Shown here: positions 5,912-43,300 of the stretch, one piece after another
Numbering within the stretch: the first letter of the stretch is position 1
How the letters are laid out: every line of letters begins with the position of its first letter
Position numbers and translations under genes: made by a program
NCBI GenBank assembly: GCA_010015675.1
Contig: ML976998.1
Coordinates: forward strand, 91,402 to 155,401
Direction: 5' to 3'
Length of the DNA stretch: 64,000 nucleotides
Source of the DNA: Byssothecium circinans
Taxonomy: Eukaryota; Ascomycota; Dothideomycetes; Pleosporales; Massarinaceae
The notes under the pieces: generated by a model
The model's database searches: none
What the model was told of the DNA's origin: nothing
Seen by the model: the letters and a program-made list of their open reading frames with translations, nothing else

Positions 5912-8900
5912 ATGAGTTTTGGCGTCGGTTTCGGTGATATCGTGAAGGTGGTTGAGCTGGCGAGAGCTGTTCGGAAGCAGTTCGTCGATGCGCCCGAACA
6001 GTACAAGGCCTTATCAAATGAGTGAGTGTTCAGAATAATTCTTTACTCACGGTGAACATCACAATTGATATTTTGAAGTGTAAAAAGTCTTTATCGGGTT
6101 GTGGAGGAGATCGACGATGTCCTCCCATATCGAGACCTTACACCACAGCAAAAGCTGCATCTCGCTGAAACACAAAAAGACTGCGAAGCTATCCTGACTT
6201 CGCTAAAAGAAAAACTTGACAAGAACACGCTTCTATCGGGATCGACCACCAACAAGAAAACCCGAGGGTTCCGCGTGGCGTGGCAGAGACTTCGGTGGGA
6301 TCAGAAAGATGTTCAAGAGTTGCGTGACCGCCTGCACCTCAGCATAGATGGCTTAAGCCTCCTCCTCCAAAATTTAACCAGCGACAAGGTCTTCGAGATC
6401 GGAAAACAGGTCGATGATATACATTTGCTAGAAGAAACTCGGGAAAAGCACCGGAAGCGAGAAGCCATCGTGAACTTTTTCTCTACGTTGGACTATGCAT
6501 CGTCTCAGCAGGACGCACTTCAAAGGCAAATTGAGAACACCGGAATGTGGTTCTTGCAGTCGAGCGAATTCGTCGAGTTCCGCGACAATGCAACCGAAAC
6601 GCTTCTTTGCCATGGAATTCCCGGGGCTGGAAAGACCGTTATGGCATCCATCGTCGTCGATCATCTGCAGGCAGTACGCAAGTCCAAGCCGAACATCAGC
6701 ATAGTGTACTTTTATTTCAGCTATGGCTCAAAAACTGAACAGACTATCGAAGCAGCATTGGGCTGTCTCGTCCGGCAACTGCTCGAGCTGACGCCTGAAA
6801 TCCCCGACGAACTGCAAGAGATATGCGCAAGTCATCAAAAGAACAAAACGAGACCAAACCCCAAGGAATTGCTCTCGATTTTTCAAACTGCGATCATGGT
6901 CCACTCGAAGGTCTTCATCATTCTTGATGCTTTAGACGAGTATCACGCAGGTGATCCAGGGCGGTGCCTCACATTCCTTGAAGAACTGATCAAAATGCAA
7001 AAGCGAGCCCGTTTCAAACTCTTTACCACAACGAGAATTAATTCGGAGATCATCTCACAGTTCGGAAACTGCCCCATGATTGAAATTCGGGCACACGACG
7101 AGGATATAAGGATGTATGTTGGTACGCGAATGCCCGAGCTGCGCAAAATCAAGAACAACCTCGAACTTCAAGACAAAGTTTATGAGACTATTCTTAACGT
7201 CACCGATGGAATGTAAGTACTCCTCTGGGAACCTGCCCCCATTTCACCAGGCTTATGGCACACGACCGCACGCCCTCATACTAATTGCAAAAGGTTCCTC
7301 CTCGCACGCTTGCACATGGATGCGCTCAAAGAACCCGTCACTCTAGGGAGCTTCAAGAAGTGCCTGGACAATTTGCCAAATGGTTCAACAGGCCTCAACG
7401 ATACATATGCTAAAGCGGTCAAACGCATTGAAGCGCAAGGTGAAGAGCGTCAGAAACTTGCAAGAAGGATATTGTGTTGGATCGTCTACGCTGCTAGAAC
7501 TCTGACTGTTGCGGAGCTCATCGACGCCCTCGCTGTCGCTGAAGATCCAGAAAGTCCTCGAGTCGACCCTGATCTAAGGCCTGATATCGAGGATATCGAT
7601 TCTTTGTGCGCCGGCTTGGTCAGGGTGGACACAAACGCGGGCACTGTGAGTCTCGTACACAAGACGACACAGGAATATTTCACCGAGGTTGCTCCTTTTC
7701 CGGATGCGCATCGAGATATTCTCAGGGTCTGTCTTTCTTGCTTGTCTTTCGTTGATGCCTTGGAAAATATTGCCTCCGACATACCCAACAATCCCTCAAC
7801 AGGCTTCCCTGCGTGGGGTATAGAGTCAATGTATGAGCAAGCCTCTCCATTGTGTCTCTATGCTGCAGAAGAATGGGGCTGGCATGCGTCCGCGGCGGGC
7901 GATTCGGATGACGACGGGGTGCACCGATTCCTTATCTCTCCCTCTAGATCCATACACGTGTCAACGTGTATGCGTTATCTGATACGGAGGGTAACAAAGG
8001 TGAATTGCTCTTCCTACCTCCAATGCCTCGGCATCCACTTAGCGGCTTATTGTGGGCTCTGTGGAGTGGTTGACGGACTCTATCAAGCTGGTCAAGCTTT
8101 CGATGCGGAGGACACTGATTGCAATATGCCGTTGTATTATGCAGCGATCCATGGGCAATTGGAGACTGTCCGGTTCCTACTAGCAATCCAGCGAGACCAG
8201 GACGAGAAGGAACCCGCACTTCAAGACGCTGACCATGAATTTAATGATTCGTGCGACGAGACCAGGGAAAGGCACCTAGAGTGCACGTTTAAATCCTTAG
8301 ACGTAGCAGCAGGTGAAGGTCATCTGCCAGTAGTCAGAGAACTTGCTTCCGTACCCGGCTTGGAAGAGACTGTCAAAAAGAAGATCTCAACGACTCCGTC
8401 AGACTGGGACCCTATTCGCACAGCAACACTCAACGGTCACACAGAAACACTGAGCTTTTTGTTGGACACTTGGGGTACGTAGCTCTCTGGCGCCGACTAC
8501 TTTGACCGTGCACACGGCCTAGCATGATACGCTATTGCAGTTTGACAATACACACTGATACCCCCTTAGCAGAATTTTGCTGACATTGTACCCTTCAAAC
8601 TTAGGTGCCTGGCTTGGAGATGCCCATCCAAATTGGGCTGCGATATCTTTGCGAGCCGCTATCCAGAGAGATCATGAACAAATCGTGCGAGCCGTACTGC
8701 ACCGAAGACGAAGTCTTCCTCTTATCTCGGACGCAATATACCAAGCCGAAGGCGATACATTCCTCTGCGAATTGACAAAGAACAGAGAGATCATTGAGAT
8801 GCTAGCCGATTGCTACCTGGAAGATGAACGCTGGAGTGAATTCGATCTCGGACAGGAGATATTTCTCCAAAGTACGGCAGTTGGGCTTTCAGAAATCGTA

Positions 8901-34027: not shown

Positions 34028-37000
34028 TTACCACACGATAGGGTTCCATTGTCGATCCCTTTCCTGTGCCTGTTTTTGTTGTAATGCTACTCTGTCATGT
34101 ACCGCTTGCATCGTAGGCGCTCCCGCTTCCCTTCGCAGGACAGCATCTCTCGCCTCCAGGGCTTGCTGTTCCTTCCACGCCTCTTGTATAGCCCACAAAT
34201 TCTTTTGTAGTTCATCGAGTCTAGCCCATTTTGAAAACCCCCTGTCCAGTTGGGATGATATCTCAAAGATACGGGTTTTGACATCTTGTGGGAGCTGTTG
34301 ATACCCTATTTTCATCTTTAGCCAAAAGGCAACGATAGAGTCTGACCGAAGATGCTGAAAAAGTTTATTGTTGGAGTCCAATTCGGAGACGACGCTGATT
34401 GCTTCGCAGGCTGCGTTGGCGTCATTTCGCATTCTGGGCATGAAACTTCGGATTGCGTGGAAAAGATCAGTGCCTAGGATTGAGATGAAATCGTGTATCT
34501 CCTGTAGAGAAGGGTAGCCAGGAATCTCATGCTGTGTTAAAGCGATCGATAGCGTTTTGGGTTCGTTTATAATGATTTGTCGCCCCACCAGATCTCGATG
34601 TTGCACCACGATAGGGGGTAGAGTAAGACCCTTCGCATCATCAAACCCTGGTTGAAATGGATGGGATGGAGGAGGGAGCGGTATTGATGGCACTGGACTA
34701 GCTAGTAACGCATTTGCTGGGTTCGAGCCGGCTCCAAATTCCAGTTCGACCAGGAAATCTAGCATCTCAGATGCCTGTGTCGAGATACTATGTCGTTTCT
34801 CAGCGCCCACTGCCCATAGCGTCTCTTCTCTTGGCATATGTGGAAGAGGTAAGAACAGCCGTTGGTCTTCATCATACTCTGATACCAGTAACGCCATGTC
34901 AATCAGATGTCGGAATTGTGTGTGATCGATCTTTTGCCGGAAGTGACGAATGAGATTTATTGGGTCTACGCCAGAAGGTAGCATCGCGGAGTAGATCTCC
35001 ATGAGTGAGGGGAATTGAGTCGTTACAGGAAACAGATTGGTACTGTATCTGTGGTTCACGGCTCGTGGATCCATGGAATTGCTGGGAGAAGTCCTGGTAT
35101 CTGTGTGAAGTTGTTTCGGCTTCGGACGATCTATTTAATAAATGATCAGCAACATTTGACCAAGAAAAGATTGAGCACATACCGTCGAGGATGAACCCCT
35201 GTCTTAGGCTCATTACATCCAGCGATTGCGATTTGTCAGGTCGCGCTTGCCTAGATGTATTCGTACGAATAGATCCTCCAGTCGGAGATGCTGGGGCCCT
35301 GTTGGTTGTTCTTCCAAGTTGCCATGCGAGTGACTGACGTGCTGAGGCCTTTTCCTTTAGTAAGCACTCGGTGCAAAAGTCGGGTTGTGAAAAAGGTGGT
35401 TTGTGGACTACACAACTTTCATGGAACCAATCATGGCAATTGGGTGCGAGGCACTGTTTATCCACATCTCGCTCATCCTGGCAATAGACACAACGGTCTC
35501 TTATCCAGCCTCTCTTGGAGCACTTGTCGATTCGCGCCAAGACCAGGTAGAAGACAGCCGCCTGCTCCAAGTCATGATCGAACAACTGCATCATCTCTTC
35601 ATCTGTCGTATGAAAGTCAGTCGAACTACGCTGGAACTTGTCGAGTATCTCTGCAAGCTTCGCGTAGTGTGGCATTCCCGCCATCCGTCCAAGGTAATTG
35701 GCGACCAGTAGCTCAACTGCCGGTGATGGAACAGGCTTATTTTCATCCTGGTCGGATATGTGCCCCTGGACTGGTGCCACCTGTTGGTATAATGGACTGA
35801 AATCGGGGAGTGACGATAGTTGGGGAGGTCCAGATGTCGTCGGCTTATCGAGCACAGAAAATAAATCCACATCCATTGCTGAGTCAAAGGTATTATTTTC
35901 CCGGCTCACATCGATCAAGGCTTCCTCACTGCTGTGTACTGTTGCTGCGTCTATGTGTTAACCACTATTCCTATGTATTCGGCGCGGGCTCGGTAAAACG
36001 TACCTTCTACTGAGGCATCAAACTCATCAACAATCCTACGAAACTTACACTCGGTGCATAACGGGATTGCGTCGAAGTAGCTGTCTATTACACAAGAAAG
36101 GTGGAACGAGTCAGTGCATGCGCTGCATGATGCGCATAGGTCCAAATCCTCCACATCAGAAGACGTGCAATATACACAATCGAGCAACATAGCTTGTTGC
36201 TTTGTACATTTGTTCGCCTCTGCGAGGATCCTAAAAAAGGCGCCAAGCTTTCTCGGGTTGTTATTGAAGAATTGTCGCACCTCCAAAGATACGTCATATG
36301 CATTTAGAATATTAGTTGAGCAACTTCGAACGATTACGCGTATTCTGGAATGGTACTCCGCCCGCGTGGAATGAAGTAACGAGCCGTCATAGACGGGGAT
36401 CAGGCAATCATTGCATGCGTGAGTCTTTGGATATATGTCTCCTTCGTTGAGGCTGTAGTAGCATTTTCGATGCTGCCAAGTGTTGCATTTAACACAAAGA
36501 ATATCGTCATGCCTGGGTCGTGGTCGATCACATATGCATTTCATTTGATGGTTTGTCCAAGGAGAAATCGATCGAGATGAACGTGACTCGTGCGTTGAAA
36601 TTGAACTCTTGGAGCCGGTCTTCGTTGGAGTCGAAAGTGTCTGATCACTTTGCTCGACGAGGTTATTAAGTTTGGCTGTCGTAGTTGAGAGAGAATCAGG
36701 GTTCCGGTACAGCATCCCCTCGCCGTAATCACATGTCAATTTACGCTTCTGGCAAGGTAAACAGGCGGGTTGTTTGCCATCGCAGGCGTCTCTATTTCTG
36801 ACGCAGCTGGTACATGCGTTTGGATTCCGTTTTCCGAGACTCTGTCTGGGTGGCACTAAGCTGTCATTCTTTCGTGTAGGTTTAGCACCCGACGCTGTGC
36901 GCCCACTTATCGACACGGCTGATTTGGCTCCTGGGCTCAATATGCCAACCTTGCGTATAGACTTCCTGACCGGGATAGTAGCATGACGGCTGTCGAAGTG

Positions 37001-40000
37001 TGATTTCAAAGCCTGGGAGGTCCGAAAAGGCGGGTACTGGCAACTAACTTCCGAACATCTGAAGCCACCGGCATGGCCCGTCTCGTGTTCGTGACGGAGT
37101 TCGTCGGAATCAAATCCGATGGTGGCTCGTGGGCAAGATCGCAGGCGACAAGTATACGCAGATGTTCGAAATTGACTTTTGAAAAACCGGAGTTCCTCAA
37201 TCGATGCCCCCGGACAAGAGTCGTGGTCAAGAAGGGTTTCAACACTCTTCTGATATGCATCAAGCATTGAAGATATACTGTCATCGAACTCGGATTTTGC
37301 ATGTTGCGTGCTTAAATTGTCGTCTGTCTTTATTAGAAGGTGTGCGAATTCCTTGCGTGTTGATTACGTACCCGAAAGGAGCAGTATCTCAGATTCCAGC
37401 CTTTTCTGTGACCGAGCCCACAGCGCCTTTGTGATTGCAAGTTGCAGACATGGATAACCATTCAAGAACTTCAACCGATCATCTAGAGAGCTAAGCGGGT
37501 TTGCAACGGAGCCAGTGGTCTCGATCAGGGCCTCACTGAGGCGACATGACATGTTGACGAGAGAAGAAGAAGCGTCAAGACCGTCACCTGTCGTAGCATT
37601 TGCCAAGAGATACTCGGTCCAGTACTCGGTTGCGTAAACGTGAAGACCGTGTACACCTTTCACAAGACGAAGGAGTTTAGCATGCTCGCTATAATCCTTG
37701 CGAAAAACTTCGACGGCTGACAGAAGGCAAGCAACTGAGGCTAAGCCGTGTTCTTGCAGAGCGAGTTGTTCATTGATACAGACTACGTTGGAGTGTGATT
37801 GAAGGAACCTGTATCGGAAAATTAGCGGATTGCTTAGCGGTAGGTACTGTACAAATAGTTTAGCCGGGCGAACTAATAATGCTGATGTACGGAATGGTCC
37901 AAAAGTTCGACAAGGGTTTGCAAAACCAAAATGACAGCAAGAGTTGTGGAATGCTGGCGCATAGCTGTACTGGGGCTGAAAACCTAGGTGATGGGGAATG
38001 GGGAGTGTATCAGCTTACTCTTTGACAGAAACGTGTATGAACGCGAGCGTCGTGTCGTGCCTCTCTTCCACAAGCGGACTGCAAATTTCGAGGATATAGC
38101 GCGGTGCAGGGCTCGCAATGTCGGGGGACCCGGGAGAAAAGGCAAGGGCCGAAAGAAGTTCGAGCCGGCGTAGTGGTCGTTTAGCAAAAGCAATCCATCC
38201 CAGAACAGATGTGATCCTTTCCTTTGAACGCGCGTCCAGATTTACCACCATTTGAGTCAAGATATTCTGGTAGCTGCCATTTTATTAGCGTGGAACTCTA
38301 TTAGACACAAGTGCACCTACAACTCCGTCACCGTCTCTGGTAGTGTTTCGATGGATTTTTTGAGCTCGTTGCCGTTGAAGAACAAATTGGTGGATAAGTA
38401 GTCCAGAACTAGTCGAGCGTAGAGAAACATCCCTATAGGATTAGTACATTCGACTGTGAGTGTTGAGGCTCTGACTCACCATTGGCTTTCTCCGCTACCA
38501 ATTGTTCAATGGTCTCAATCTCTTCGATGCTCATGTCAAGCTGCCGGAGTCTCTCATGCAGAGACTGCAATCGGTGGGAGGCGTACAGTTTGATAGCTTT
38601 TGAAGTATGCTCTATCTCATCGCTCAAACACAAAGTGTGCTTCTTGGGCATGCGTCTTATTTTAGTCGGCAAAGCACGGCTAGACAAAAGTACCTTGCAA
38701 ATTGTCGAGCTTTGCAGGGAACTTTTTGACGCTAGATTAAGTAGCAATGAGACTAAGCGTGCTTGTTTCGCAGTTTCGCACTCCTCGATTCCGTCGATGA
38801 TTATCCACACGTATTCAGAGTGATGGGCTTCAGAGAGCGCAGATAGGAGGGTTGACAGAAGCTGTTCAAGACTCGGTGTAGTAGGCGCTTTTTTGCCGAC
38901 AACGTACTCATGGTATGCAAAGGCGGTCAAATCTCCACTGAATCGCAATAGTTGATGCACAAGCGATCTCAGTATGGCATCGTACCTAGTCGAGGAGGCG
39001 TACGTGTAGCTGCAGAAATGGTGCAGAACATGTGATCTCGATCCTTGAAGAAAGCCTACAAGCTGTGTCGTCATAACACTTTTTCCAGTCCCAGGATTTC
39101 CTTGGACCCATAGCTGTTGATAGTCAGGCTTCCGTGATAACCAAGCCTTGATTTGGCTGTTGTTCGATATCCAGCTACACGTTCCGGAGTATTTCGATCC
39201 TTCTTCTGATATTGACTCGAAGATGGCTATTTGTTCCGTCTCATCGGTCTTCAACCAGGATAAAACGGACTGATACTGCTTTGTGGCTTGATGTCTCTCT
39301 TCTTGTTCAACCTTCTCAAGACTCTCCTCTCTCCACTGACGATGCTCCTCGCGATGTAAGCGCGCTTCTGCAATGTTGCGAGCATTGGCTTCCATATCGA
39401 TGAGTTCGCCATGCTTGCTGAGGTCATGGAGCAAATTGGCAAAGCGTCGTTGAAAACGACCCCAAGATGTGTTGAAGAGAAGGTGCCAGCCTAGCAGAAG
39501 TCAGGGTATGCATGCCAGTGGGCTTTTGTGGCTTACTGCTTCGCCTGACGAATTTGTAGGCATGTTTGTGGAATTGTAGAATGTCGGCGTAGAATATGGC
39601 GAGGGTGTGTTGAAATCCGGCGTCATTCGGGAAGGCGTTGCCAAGAATCTCAAAGCGGACTAGTGCCTTGGCTATCTGGCTGTACCCCTTCATGATGTGT
39701 TCAAAGGCCTCGAGGAATTCCGAAGAGACCCTCAGTATCAGGCTGATCGGCGCCCAAATCCAACTCAAATACGGCGTTCCGTTGCATAGCACTTCAATCA
39801 CCTTTGCGTAATGCTCGAGACCGTTCAGCAATGGGGCAAGGCGACGCATATTCCGGAGACTTCCTCTCGCAGCCAGCTGCCTCTCAATATCCAAGGCTGC
39901 TTCGCGTACCTGTCCGATAGCAGTCATTGAACGCATCTGTATGGCGTCTGCGGGAGTTATCGTCTTCTCGAGGTCCTCAAAGGCGGCTTTTATAGTCCCT

Positions 40001-40038
40001 CTGGCCAGCGCCGACACGGTAGGCGCCATTCGAGGCAT
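34028..40038 (-). CDS. Giant NACHT protein with C2H2, Zn2Cys6 and PHD-type zinc fingers
   Basis: Eight minus-strand exons: 40038-39537, 39490-38480, 38432-38321, 38273-38019, 37808-37372, 37323-36004, 35950-35183 and 35130-34028. All are GT-AG and close to 1835 aa. Residues about 60-190 match the DUF7708-type helical domain of fungal NACHT proteins (NGTPYLSWIWAPI, FYADILQFHKHAYKF). NACHT has P-loop GNPGTGKS (298-305) and Walker B YVWIIIDGIEECE (about 394-406), then a winged-helix-like part. Two C2H2-like fingers lie at about 831-886. A canonical Zn2Cys6 motif has cysteines 943, 946, 953, 960, 963 and 970 (spacing 2-6-6-2-6) followed by basic QKRKL. A PHD finger spans about 1035-1079 and two related PHD-like units lie at about 1155-1198 and 1366-1408. 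The last 400 residues are helical and unrecognised. Role is unknown; STAND switch plus DNA/histone-binding parts suggests a nuclear sensor or regulator. Confidence 0.85.
36731..36814 (-). other. Zn2Cys6 binuclear-cluster motif within the NACHT protein
   Basis: Six cysteines spaced C-x2-C-x6-C-x6-C-x2-C-x6-C with lysine/arginine between the last two, exactly the fungal Gal4-type DNA-binding pattern. It lies in the middle of a single long exon (37323-36004), so it is not produced by a doubtful splice join. Confidence 0.85.
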
Positions 40039-40314: not shown

Positions 40315-43300
40315 ATGACGAATTCCTATCGGCGTGGTGCGAAGCGGCAGCGACTGCTAGAAGACGAGAATGCGGCTGAGTTACCTTTCACTGTTCAGCC
40401 TGACCCTAACACGATATCGCCACTTCACACCATTTCGGATGACGGCCTTACAGTCCTCAACAGTGCTCCATCAAATGCTATAGGCGAGCGAGACGAACTG
40501 GTTTGTTTTGGCGTTGTAAGTTACAGGAAAATGTTGAACACTGGCTGGAAGAACAGTTAAACAGGCGCGAACTCATAGGCGCCCAGCGGTCATGTGAATA
40601 GCTTCTCATTTAAGCTAAGAAAAACACCACTCCTCTTCGCCGCTAAGTGAGCACTCAAGGAAGCAGCTAACACAATAAAGATTTCCTCAGTTGACGGCAA
40701 ATGCGAGCAACATTACTCCACTACTGACGCATTTCCGGTCCAACTAACTTCCTCCGATCGCTTTCTATTGCCGAATTCATCCCAAATTGTCGGCCACATT
40801 TCTACGCAACATGGGCCTATGATCGATGGCCTACTAGGCGAACAGTCTTTGGTCCTATACACCTTGTGTAAACCCGACCTCACGCAAAAGTCTCGCCCCA
40901 CCGCATTGACTCAGCTCTCTTGTTCTCTCGAAATAGCCGTTTATGGTCCGTTGGAGCTCTGTGAGGAGATCGGTAGCTGGTTTGAAGATTATGACGTCTT
41001 CCTCCAGGACCCTCGTATCTGTCATCTGGACGTTAGGTACTGTAATCCGCAGAAGCTTTCAACGCACAATTCGGAGCCTACTTTGACTGTTTCCCAAATC
41101 ATCGCACAATCTTCTGCGCGGGTCCACTTCCAAGAGCTCAATGATCGGCCTGATCTACTCGAGATCATCAGTGGCCAAGAAGATCTTGAAGAAACAATAC
41201 CATCACTACTGCTCTGTACAACCCTCCACAAGTAAGTAACCTCAGTATTTATATCGCGAAGCAATTCTTACCTTCTGCGAAGACATCAGAAACAAGCCCT
41301 AACCTTTATGCGCCGCCGAGAAACTGGTTGGAAACCAGGTGACACATGGCAAGATATCTGGGAGATGGATGATTCCAGTCAAGGAAGACAGTAAGCACAT
41401 TCACCCTGTAGGCTCTTCTCCGAATGCTTGAAACGATGAACCTGGTTTGTATCAACGCACACGCTGGCTACCAAAGATGTCTGTGTTTGATTCCGCCACC
41501 TAATGTTCTAACGATTGTATAGTTACGTCAACCGCATTACCAAGCAGCATCAAGGCGAACCTCCCCAACAATGTCACGGAGGGATCATCGCTGATCCAAT
41601 GGGCCTCGGAAAGACACTGACCATGATTGCATTAGCAGTCAGTGACTTCACGGCGCTCACGGAGCACAACATCAGATGGCAAGAGTTGGACGATTTTGTT
41701 TCAGTTAATGCGACACTCGTAATCGTCCCACAGCCATGTATGTTCACACACTACATTACAGTTCTTTCCCAGCTAACCAGTATTGTCGGACACAGTGTTG
41801 AATACTTGGGAGGAACAACTAACAGAGTAAGTGCATGTATGCGTCAAGAATTTGTCGAAGCTTTCCATGGTTCCCACTTGATGAGCGTCGCCAAATTTTT
41901 GCGCCAATGATACATGTAGGGAGGCCGGTATTGAGTGCTAAATTTGTCTTAGACATGTTGCCAGCGGTCGCGTTCGAGTTTGTCGCCATCACAACAAGAC
42001 TAGGGTTCGGAGTCTGGACGATCTTCGAGGCGTCAACATTGTGTTGACAACATACCATACGCTATCAGCCGATTGGAATAGCCAGAAAGCAGACATAGAA
42101 ACTCGCATTATGTTCGCAGTGCGTTGGAAGAGGCTCATACTGGACGAAGGTACGTTCACATTCCGTACGTAATGCACGCAATGCTCAAGTAATCAAGCAC
42201 ATCTCATCCGTAACGTGAAAACGCGGATGGCTCGCGCAATCTACCAACTCGAAGCGGATGCGCGTTGGGCGGTGACGGGAACACCTATCCAGAATAATAT
42301 CAGCGACCTTGCTGCCCTCCTCAGGTTCATCCGCGCATACCCCTATAATGATTTAAAACAATTCGACAATGACATCTCCCGGATGTGGAAGGCTGGAGAG
42401 GATGAAGAAGCCGTGAAGAGATTGAAGCGTCTTTCACGTTGCTTGATACTTCGTAGGGCCAAGAAGACTATCGATCTCCCTGTCCGAAGAGATGTCAAAT
42501 GCCCAGTCGACTTCAGCAAAGCGGAAAGAACTTTGTACGAGGGTATTCGACAACAGGCCATTTTAAAGATCGATGACGCCCTCTATCACGATATGGAGCT
42601 TTCTCGGTCCGGTGCATACGTCAACTTCCTTCAGCAGATTGAGTCAATGCGACTGGTCTGCAACTTGGGCCTTCATTACCATAGTCGCCATGGAAATTCC
42701 GCTTCGAGGGCTCCGGCAGATTGGACAGCCACCGCACAGCAGGCTTTCAATTCTCACCGCGAAATGAATACTATCGTCTGCTCTCAATGTTCCTCTAGTC
42801 TCGAGATGACCGAAAGCGTCATGGATGACTCAACCTTTCAAGACAGTCCTCTCTTCTCACGCTGTCTGAAGTATGCGTGCGCAGAATGCGCTCACCAACT
42901 CCGAATTACCGGATTCAATATGGCCTGCGACCATACCCCCCGCTGTCCAGTTGCGCCGGTCTCTATCAGCACGAGCTCACTTGAGGAGACTTTCAACCAA
43001 CCGCACGGCAAAGATAGAGCAATGCCAACGATTCGAGGTAGCTTCCCATCAAAAGTTGAAGTCCTGGTATCTGATCTCAAGGCCCTACCCTGGGATGTCA
43101 AAAGGTTCATAGCTCACCCGTCTCCTGCGAAAATTCGGCGACATGATGGCTAATGCTCAGCAGTATCGTCTTCTCTACCTGGAGACTCACACTTGACCTC
43201 GTCGAGACTGGTCTCAACCAGGCAGGCATTCAATGTGTACGTTTCGACGGAAAAGTACCGCAAACGCAACGACAGCCTGTCTTGAATCGCTTCAAGAACG

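What the first reader, a model, noticed from the sequence alone, without database searches (positions are those of the whole stretch)
34028..40038. NLR-type switch fused to Zn2Cys6, C2H2 and PHD fingers
One 1835-residue model carries a DUF7708-like N-terminus, an intact NACHT P-loop and Walker B, and then an unbroken exon with two C2H2-like fingers, an exact 2-6-6-2-6 Zn2Cys6 cluster and a PHD finger, with two more PHD-like units after it. Fungal STAND proteins usually end in ankyrin, WD40 or TPR sensor repeats. Here the place of the sensor is taken by DNA-binding and histone-reader modules. By analogy with integrated-domain NLRs of plants (for example RRS1 with WRKY) and transcription-regulating NLRs of animals (CIITA, NLRC5), this could be a nuclear sensor, a decoy that watches effectors aimed at transcription factors, or a direct regulator. 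I do not know of a described fungal protein with this order, but I cannot search.
Basis: partly seen in the sequence, partly recalled or inferred. Interest (0 to 1): 0.87.

Follow-up and report, generated by a model that had tools for sequence, protein, structure and literature searches.

The report
Fungal NLR with exchangeable chromatin-type tail
This fungal gene encodes an immune-receptor-like switch whose end carries pieces resembling gene-control proteins, and some relatives carry different gene-control pieces in the same place, as if the slot held interchangeable bait; what it senses has not been tested.

Summary
A minus-strand gene (40038..34028, eight exons, seven GT-AG introns) encodes 1835 residues: DUF7708, NACHT-type NTPase (NPHP3_N 6.7e-35), a C2H2-like pair, a 2-6-6-2-6 Zn2Cys6 cluster, a PHD finger and two PHD-like units. 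The C2H2-like pair belongs to the family core (146 of 155 listed relatives). The core is 59-69% identical to two Periconia proteins; beyond the pair identity is 13-26%, except the PHD (49% to one). That PHD is closest to a SET3-like gene in its own genome, and a SIN3 PAH-like unit precedes the last finger. In relatives the same slot holds other transcription/chromatin modules (43 of 155), with at least 32 label changes on a quick core tree. The Zn2Cys6 lacks the basic residue before Cys3 seen in 46 of 48 resident clusters read, which argues against ordinary DNA binding. Best reading: an NLR with a slot for captured nuclear-machinery domains, probably bait. Ligand, location and function are untested. 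Zinc fingers and decoys in fungal NLRs are in print; my searches found no report of this rotating slot.

The parts
34028..40038 (-). whole gene, 8 exons, 1835 aa: DUF7708, NACHT, C2H2-like pair and nuclear-type tail
   Evidence: splice model; alignment of residues 1-1080 to P0001
39366..39828 (-). DUF7708, residues 71-209 (spans intron 1); stands where NLRs have their signalling domain, function unknown
   Evidence: Pfam 5.2e-15
38676..39185 (-). NACHT-type NTPase (NPHP3_N), residues 270-439
   Evidence: Pfam 6.7e-35; P-loop and Walker B
39078..39101 (-). Walker A GNPGTGKS, residues 298-305
36983..37150 (-). C2H2-like pair, residues 831-886; constant end of the family core
   Evidence: pattern kept in 146 of 155 listed relatives; AF2 blocks of pLDDT 64-88; C2H2 structures head the Foldseek list, none under E 0.001; no Pfam C2H2 match
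36731..36814 (-). Zn2Cys6 cluster, residues 943-970, exact 2-6-6-2-6 spacing, Ala before Cys3
   Evidence: Zn_clus 26.5 bits as segment, 25.8 bits in own-genome search; residue control
36404..36538 (-). PHD finger, residues 1035-1079, nearest to the SET3-like PHD of its own genome
   Evidence: PHD 20.7 bits, cut-off 24; own-genome best 47%, 4.6e-9; PDB: alone HORMA-protein PHD 1.3e-5 then SET3 5.8e-4, as profile of six NLR PHDs SET3 first
36047..36178 (-). PHD-like cysteine/histidine unit, residues 1155-1198
   Evidence: pattern; Pfam only zf-HC5HC2H_2 0.024 and PHD 0.33
35517..35729 (-). PAH-like helical unit, residues 1287-1357
   Evidence: hhalign to PAH profile: Prob 89.8, E 1.8e-6 with two relatives; alone 18.1 against a best of 15.8 in 200 control stretches; AF2 helices at low confidence; Foldseek top SIN3-UME6 but E 1.5; no Pfam PAH match
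35364..35492 (-). third PHD-like unit, residues 1366-1408
   Evidence: zf-HC5HC2H 25.1 bits, cut-off 29.1; cysteines kept in P0001 and P0002
34028..35130 (-). exon 8, residues 1469-1835, no recognised domain
   Evidence: no match; whole tail found nothing

Best explanation
Shown: the gene belongs to a fungal NLR (STAND NTPase) family with a constant core DUF7708-NACHT-C2H2-like pair, followed by a slot in which a good part of the named members carry modules of the transcription and chromatin machinery, different ones in different members. Here the slot holds a Zn2Cys6 cluster, a SET3-like PHD finger, a SIN3 PAH-like helical unit and two further PHD-like fingers. Inferred: the slot is a bait. 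At rest the C-terminal region holds the NACHT switch shut; a foreign or non-self protein that attacks the real machinery (HDAC co-repressor complexes of the Set3 and Sin3 kind for this copy; RSC/SWI-SNF, Mediator or SAGA for others) binds or alters the copy, the NACHT exchanges nucleotide and oligomerises, and the DUF7708 end signals. The C2H2-like pair may place the receptor on nucleic acid or in the nucleus. Replacing the module changes what is watched, which would explain a conserved core with an exchanged tail.
For: Core 59-69% identical to two Periconia relatives, tail 13-26% apart from the PHD, with the break just after the C2H2-like pair. 43 of 155 listed relatives carry a transcription/chromatin module in that slot: Rsc7/Swp82 in 15, Med15 pieces in 9, SET3-type PHD in 8, ING-type PHD in 4, Zn2Cys6 in 3, PP4R3 EVH1 in 2, KIX, QLQ, Clr5 and SGF29 tudor in 1 each, two of them with two kinds (recount); 7 carry WD40, KRIT1-type ankyrin or WW instead. 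On a FastTree tree of 151 cores the SET3-type PHD (9 rows) needs at least 5 changes, Zn2Cys6 (4 rows) 4, Med15 (8 rows) 6, the labels together 32 (33 after one label was corrected). The PHD segment of P0001 is 48.6% identical over 111 aa to the resident SET3-like protein, beyond the finger itself: descent from a known nuclear gene. A profile of six NLR PHDs, without that resident PHD, finds yeast SET3 first in the PDB. The Rsc7 module recurs through a Trichoderma clade. The Zn2Cys6 spacing is kept while the basic residue before Cys3 is lost.
Against: No ligand, location or signalling test exists. Most listed tails have no named module: of 14 long-tailed relatives scanned none gave a tail domain over its cut-off, so 'nuclear' is the majority only among those that could be named, and the naming was not blind. 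The PHD profiles were built from some of the proteins they then matched. The window's own PHD, alone, matches a HORMA-protein PHD in the PDB better than SET3. Label changes were counted on a quick tree with unnamed tails scored as absent and cannot tell gain from loss. The PAH-like call rests on moderate profile scores and a model of pLDDT 46. A non-nuclear minority exists.
Confidence: 0.5

Rival explanations
1. Direct nuclear regulator: the NACHT switch drives a chromatin- or DNA-bound output through its own fingers, as CIITA and NLRC5 do in animals (recalled). The tail is then the effector, not the bait.
For: Zn2Cys6, PHD and PAH-like unit after a C2H2-like pair in one protein; PAH and PHD are parts of co-repressors (recalled); the Rsc7/Swp82 module recurs through a Trichoderma clade.
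Against: Modules of different complexes sit in the same slot of close relatives; the window's Zn2Cys6 lacks the basic residue before Cys3; the tail differs far more than the core; a simple pattern found only one short basic cluster, KRK at 965.
Confidence: 0.25
2. Nucleic-acid or general protein sensor: the constant C2H2-like pair is the real sensor and the tails are loosely constrained additions.
For: Pair in 146 of 155; the authors of PMC12258605 propose zinc fingers as fungal NLR sensors (sections 14 and 20 read); 12 of 155 have tails under 60 aa, such as P0137 beside the Rsc7-bearing P0033; most long tails are unnamed.
Against: Repeated appearance of the same kinds of module with kept zinc ligands is not expected of neutral additions.
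Confidence: 0.18
3. Gene-model artefact: an NLR and a neighbouring chromatin gene read as one.
For: No transcript data; exon 8 has no homologue.
Against: C2H2-like pair, Zn2Cys6, PHD and the second PHD-like unit lie in one unbroken exon; an independent genome's protein aligns continuously from residue 1 to 1080; the two nearest rows of the tree, P0001 and P0002, have NLR core and PHD on one protein.
Confidence: 0.05

Closest known systems
P0001 (Periconia digitata, 1799 aa) and P0002 (P. macrospinosa, 1696 aa)
   Same: best local alignments 56% and 63%; C2H2-like pair, PHD, PAH-like unit and last PHD-like finger
   Different: no Zn2Cys6 by pattern; P0001 has two PHDs, P0002 also DUF7896
P0114 (Trichoderma velutinum, 1395 aa)
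   Same: DUF7708, NACHT-type NTPase, C2H2-like pair, SET3-type PHD and Zn2Cys6 in one protein
   Different: best alignment 40%; Zn2Cys6 lies near the end and keeps KVK before Cys3; far off on the tree, so probably a separate acquisition
Sordariales NLRs with zinc fingers and other non-canonical domains (PMC12258605; passages and sections 14 and 20 read)
   Same: 57 NLRs with zinc fingers, 52 of them C-terminal; a CHK2-like kinase as putative integrated decoy
   Different: the parts read do not describe this family or a slot rotating among transcription/chromatin modules; 'PHD' and 'chromatin' occur 0 times in the main text; its supplementary tables were not seen
Plant integrated-domain NLRs such as RRS1-WRKY (recalled)
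   Same: NLR core with a copy of a nuclear regulator domain
   Different: NACHT instead of NB-ARC, no LRR matched, effector binding unknown here
CIITA / NLRC5 (recalled)
   Same: NACHT protein linked to transcription
   Different: no LRR matched; domain order differs
SET3 / MLL5 and SIN3
   Same: PHD type and PAH-like unit
   Different: no SET domain and no other SIN3 part matched in the window protein

Membership tests
fungal NLR (NACHT STAND) | NTPase with Walker A and B | tested here: met
fungal NLR (NACHT STAND) | winged-helix part after the NTPase | tested here: inconclusive
   HTH_TANC1 0.0099 and GPIID_WHD 0.11, below cut-offs; E better than 1e-3 but still below cut-off in P0026, P0005, P0114, P0118 and P0025
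fungal NLR (NACHT STAND) | known N-terminal effector domain (HeLo, HET, sesB, PNP and the like) | tested here: not met
   Pfam gives only DUF7708 of unknown function
fungal NLR (NACHT STAND) | C-terminal ANK, WD40 or TPR repeats | tested here: not met
   none in the Pfam scan; an NLR-like protein with an atypical C-terminus
NLR with integrated domain | extra domain derived from a non-NLR host protein | tested here: met
   PHD 47% identical, 4.6e-9, to a resident PHD-plus-SET gene; 48.6% over 111 aa in P0001
NLR with integrated domain | domain is bound or altered by a foreign effector and triggers the receptor | not testable with these tools
   needs experiment
Zn2Cys6 transcription factor | six cysteines at canonical spacing | tested here: met
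Zn2Cys6 transcription factor | basic residue before Cys3 (base contact, recalled from Gal4) | tested here: not met
   Ala here; K or R in 30 of 30 highest-scoring and 16 of 18 readable low-scoring resident clusters (20 fetched; exceptions G and V); 50 of 131 matches examined
Zn2Cys6 transcription factor | fungal transcription-factor middle domain | tested here: not met
   no such Pfam match up to E 10
SET3 family | PHD plus SET domain | tested here: not met
   PHD only; no SET match
CIITA/NLRC5-type NLR | C-terminal LRRs | tested here: not met
   no LRR match
CIITA/NLRC5-type NLR | nuclear action on promoters | not testable with these tools
   needs experiment

The most novel reading that the evidence does not exclude
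Filamentous fungi run a dedicated class of NLR surveillance over the gene-control machinery: one conserved NACHT chassis whose last segment is repeatedly replaced by captured pieces of SET3, SIN3-type co-repressors, RSC/SWI-SNF, SAGA and Mediator, each a decoy for foreign or non-self proteins that attack that complex. The list of captured domains would then be a readable catalogue of which nuclear complexes are attacked in fungi.
Probability: 0.42. Interest if true: 0.88.

Novelty: new variant of a known kind. Interest (0 to 1): 0.72.

Why it matters
Integrated decoys tell plant biologists which host proteins effectors attack. For fungi little is known about what NLRs sense. A family with one constant chassis and nameable, captured nuclear modules makes that question testable: each tail nominates a host complex to use as bait in binding screens. 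It would also suggest that bacteria, viruses or rival fungi manipulate fungal chromatin.

Tried and rejected

Papers: PMC12258605, passages and sections 14 and 20; PMC9815663 and PMC4986451, term searches only; others only as listings. Searches in which I saw no description of this family: (DUF7708: 0 papers).
Full report
WHAT IS THERE. Pfam finds DUF7708 (71-209, 5.2e-15) and NPHP3_N, a NACHT-type NTPase (270-439, 6.7e-35); NACHT itself, Zn_clus, zf-HC5HC2H and PHD fall below their cut-offs on the whole protein. As separate segments the Zn2Cys6 reaches 26.5 bits (cut-off 21) and the PHD 20.7 (cut-off 24), while the PHD of the resident SET3-like gene scores 22.2; the C2H2-like pair matches no C2H2 family and is named from its cysteine/histidine pattern. 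In a search of the own genome the Zn2Cys6 passes the cut-off again (25.8 bits, third from the end of 131 listed matches). Walker A GNPGTGKS and Walker B are present. In 20,000 shuffles of the tail the exact Zn2Cys6 spacing appeared 0 times, a looser form once, a PHD-like pattern 0 times.

ONE GENE OR TWO. The C2H2-like pair, Zn2Cys6, PHD and second PHD-like unit lie in one unbroken exon of 440 residues. P0001, one annotated protein of Periconia digitata, aligns without a break from model residue 1 to 1080 at 56%, across introns 1-5. Exon 7 is supported by weaker alignments to P0001 and P0002. Exon 8 is not supported by homology.

THE FAMILY. Two protein searches listed 155 relatives (120 of 182 significant; 120 of 425, 35 of them new); both scored only the 7990 or so candidates sharing most words. 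The species names shown that I recognise are filamentous ascomycetes (recalled, not looked up). The length limits of the first search favour long proteins, so tail lengths are not a fair sample. 146 of 155 keep the C2H2-pair pattern, so the pair is the end of the constant core. Against the two nearest relatives the window protein is 59-69% identical over DUF7708, NACHT, the following part and the pair, and 13-26% beyond, except the PHD, 49% to P0001. In P0002 that alignment does not match its PHD to this one (14%), but a PHD profile finds one there (4.4e-9).

THE SLOT. I ran Pfam on 34 of the 155 and used the precomputed Pfam column for the rest, tail-to-tail comparison, two small PHD profiles (partly circular, as seven of the twelve relatives named by them helped to build them... 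see next sentence) and domain-to-tail comparison. The SET3-type profile was built from P0001, P0056, P0114, P0136, P0139, the window and the resident SET3-like PHD, and newly found P0002, P0118 and P0138; the ING-type profile was built from P0003, P0027 and P0034 and newly found P0084. A transcription or chromatin module is so named in 43 of 155 (recount): Rsc7/Swp82 in 15 (1.4e-28 in P0005), Med15 pieces in 9 (seven by tail similarity only; the two Pfam scores lie just under the cut-off), SET3-type PHD in 8, ING-type PHD in 4, Zn2Cys6 in 3, PP4R3 EVH1 in 2 (9.2e-15 in P0071), KIX (4.4e-8, P0022), QLQ (1.1e-9, P0106), Clr5 (1.5e-14, P0119) and SGF29 tudor (3.4e-17, P0148); P0003 and P0114 carry two kinds. 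That these are nuclear modules is recalled. The name ING-type is mine, by eye; for P0003 Pfam gives PHD 2.1e-4. Seven carry WD40 (3), KRIT1-type ankyrin (3) or WW (1); the WD40 accessions are recalled. DUF7896, of unknown function, is in 11 by the precomputed column. The other tails are unnamed or short: of 14 long-tailed relatives none gave a tail domain over its cut-off (two weak ones, Zap1_zf1 in P0080 and HD_assoc in P0028, lie below), and P0009, P0109 and P0057 none. So the predominance of nuclear modules holds only among named tails.

ON A TREE. A FastTree tree of 151 cores (156 less 5 with incomplete cores) places the window with P0001 and P0002 (support 100). The least number of changes is 5 for the SET3-type PHD (9 rows), 4 for Zn2Cys6 (4 rows), 3 for Rsc7 (16 rows; 4 for 15 rows once P0007 is corrected), 6 for Med15 (8 rows), 1 for the ING-type PHD (4 rows) and 32 for all labels (33). 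Close neighbours differ: QLQ in P0106 beside P0128 with none named; SGF29 in P0148 beside P0065; PHD in P0136 beside PP4R3 in P0071. The Rsc7 module recurs through a Trichoderma clade. Unnamed tails count as absent, and gain is not separated from loss.

WHERE THE WINDOW'S MODULES COME FROM. For the 557-residue stretch of the tail searched in the own genome, the best match outside the gene is the PHD of a PHD-plus-SET gene on contig 71; for the PHD alone it is the same (47%, 4.6e-9), then the contig 5 gene (5.2e-6). Over 72 residues the tail is 40% identical to it; P0001 is 48.6% identical over 111 residues, E 4e-27. Against solved structures a profile of six NLR PHDs finds yeast SET3 first (1.9e-13), then MLL5 and a HORMA protein; P0001's PHD alone MLL5, then SET3; the window's PHD alone a HORMA protein (1.3e-5), then SET3 (5.8e-4). 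So the SET3/MLL5 descent is clear for P0001 and likely, not certain, for the diverged window copy. That copy has lost the DDDG loop shared by P0001 (as DDDG), P0056 and SET3 but keeps all zinc ligands and WQH. For residues 1287-1357, comparison with the five PAH repeats found in this genome (three of a SIN3-like gene on contig 61, two of the contig 5 gene) gives probability 89.8 and E 1.8e-6 when aligned with P0001 and P0002; the window sequence alone scores 18.1 where the best of 200 random core stretches scores 15.8. Foldseek's first hit for the exon 7 model is a SIN3-UME6 complex, with E 1.5 on a model of pLDDT 46; VIA-align does not set it apart; Pfam does not see it. The tail thus resembles pieces of Set3- and Sin3-type histone deacetylase co-repressors; that grouping is my inference and the complex memberships are recalled.

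IS THE ZN2CYS6 A DNA BINDER. In 30 of 30 highest-scoring resident clusters and 16 of 18 readable low-scoring ones of 20 fetched the residue before the third cysteine is K or R; here it is A (VRNRDA). 50 of 131 matches were examined. The T. velutinum relative keeps KVK. Zinc ligands are kept and the usual contact (recalled) is lost, which fits bait or protein contact better than a working transcription factor. It does not prove it.

MECHANISM. Shown: architecture, family, different modules in one slot, kinship of the PHD. Inferred: autoinhibition by the C-terminus, triggering by a protein that attacks the real machinery, NACHT oligomerisation, signalling by DUF7708. The general scheme is the one PMC12258605 draws for fungal NLRs after plants (passage). 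Rivals are a direct regulator, a C2H2-based sensor with loosely constrained tails, and a model artefact.

PRIOR WORK. [quoted passage not shown] So zinc fingers in fungal NLRs and the decoy idea are known; its supplementary tables were not seen and may list some of these domains. Term searches found 'zinc finger' 0 times in the main text of PMC9815663 and of PMC4986451. DUF7708 occurs in no paper of the library, and searches joining NACHT with Rsc7, KIX or QLQ, with PHD and Zn2Cys6, or with decoy and chromatin listed no description of this family that I could see. Most subscription papers and all bioRxiv preprints are outside the library.

VERDICT. A real architecture with good sequence support, a new variant of a known kind: a fungal NLR family with a slot that takes different nuclear-machinery modules.

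Noticed in passing
window 40315-43150 (+): Frames with SNF2 matches (41512-41910, 42173-43153) follow a frame with an ATG at 40315; if they are one gene it stands head to head with the NLR, about 276 bp between the two ATGs.
   Followed up: partly
window 6536-7036 (+): Another NPHP3_N match, 3.1e-36, in the same window (C22:97937-98437); the genome has 110 such matches, pieces of one gene counted apart.
   Followed up: no
L025 (own genome C34:157500-163500): A relative of the same core with a different, shorter tail that shows further C2H2-like fingers by eye; a remnant of the C2H2 part with stop codons lies at C44:137158.
   Followed up: partly
L027:1-4332 (-), own genome C5: One frame with PHD, two PAH and a second PHD match (Pfam) and C2H2-like stretches: the same kind of nuclear mosaic; no NPHP3_N match is listed near it.
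   Followed up: partly
P0001 and P0155 tails: They share a stretch of about 117 residues at 35% that resembles a TFIIS N-terminal domain by eye; Pfam and PDB did not confirm it.
   Followed up: partly
window PHD, 36404-36538: Its best solved match is the PHD of a HORMA-domain protein (9mug, 1.3e-5), a meiotic kind of protein (recalled), rather than SET3.
   Followed up: partly
tails of P0032, P0036, P0038, P0074, P0089, P0096 and of P0043, P0064, P0066, P0111, P0140: Two groups of related, unnamed tails; by eye in the printed ones the first has a CxxC and later histidines, the second is glutamine-rich.
   Followed up: no
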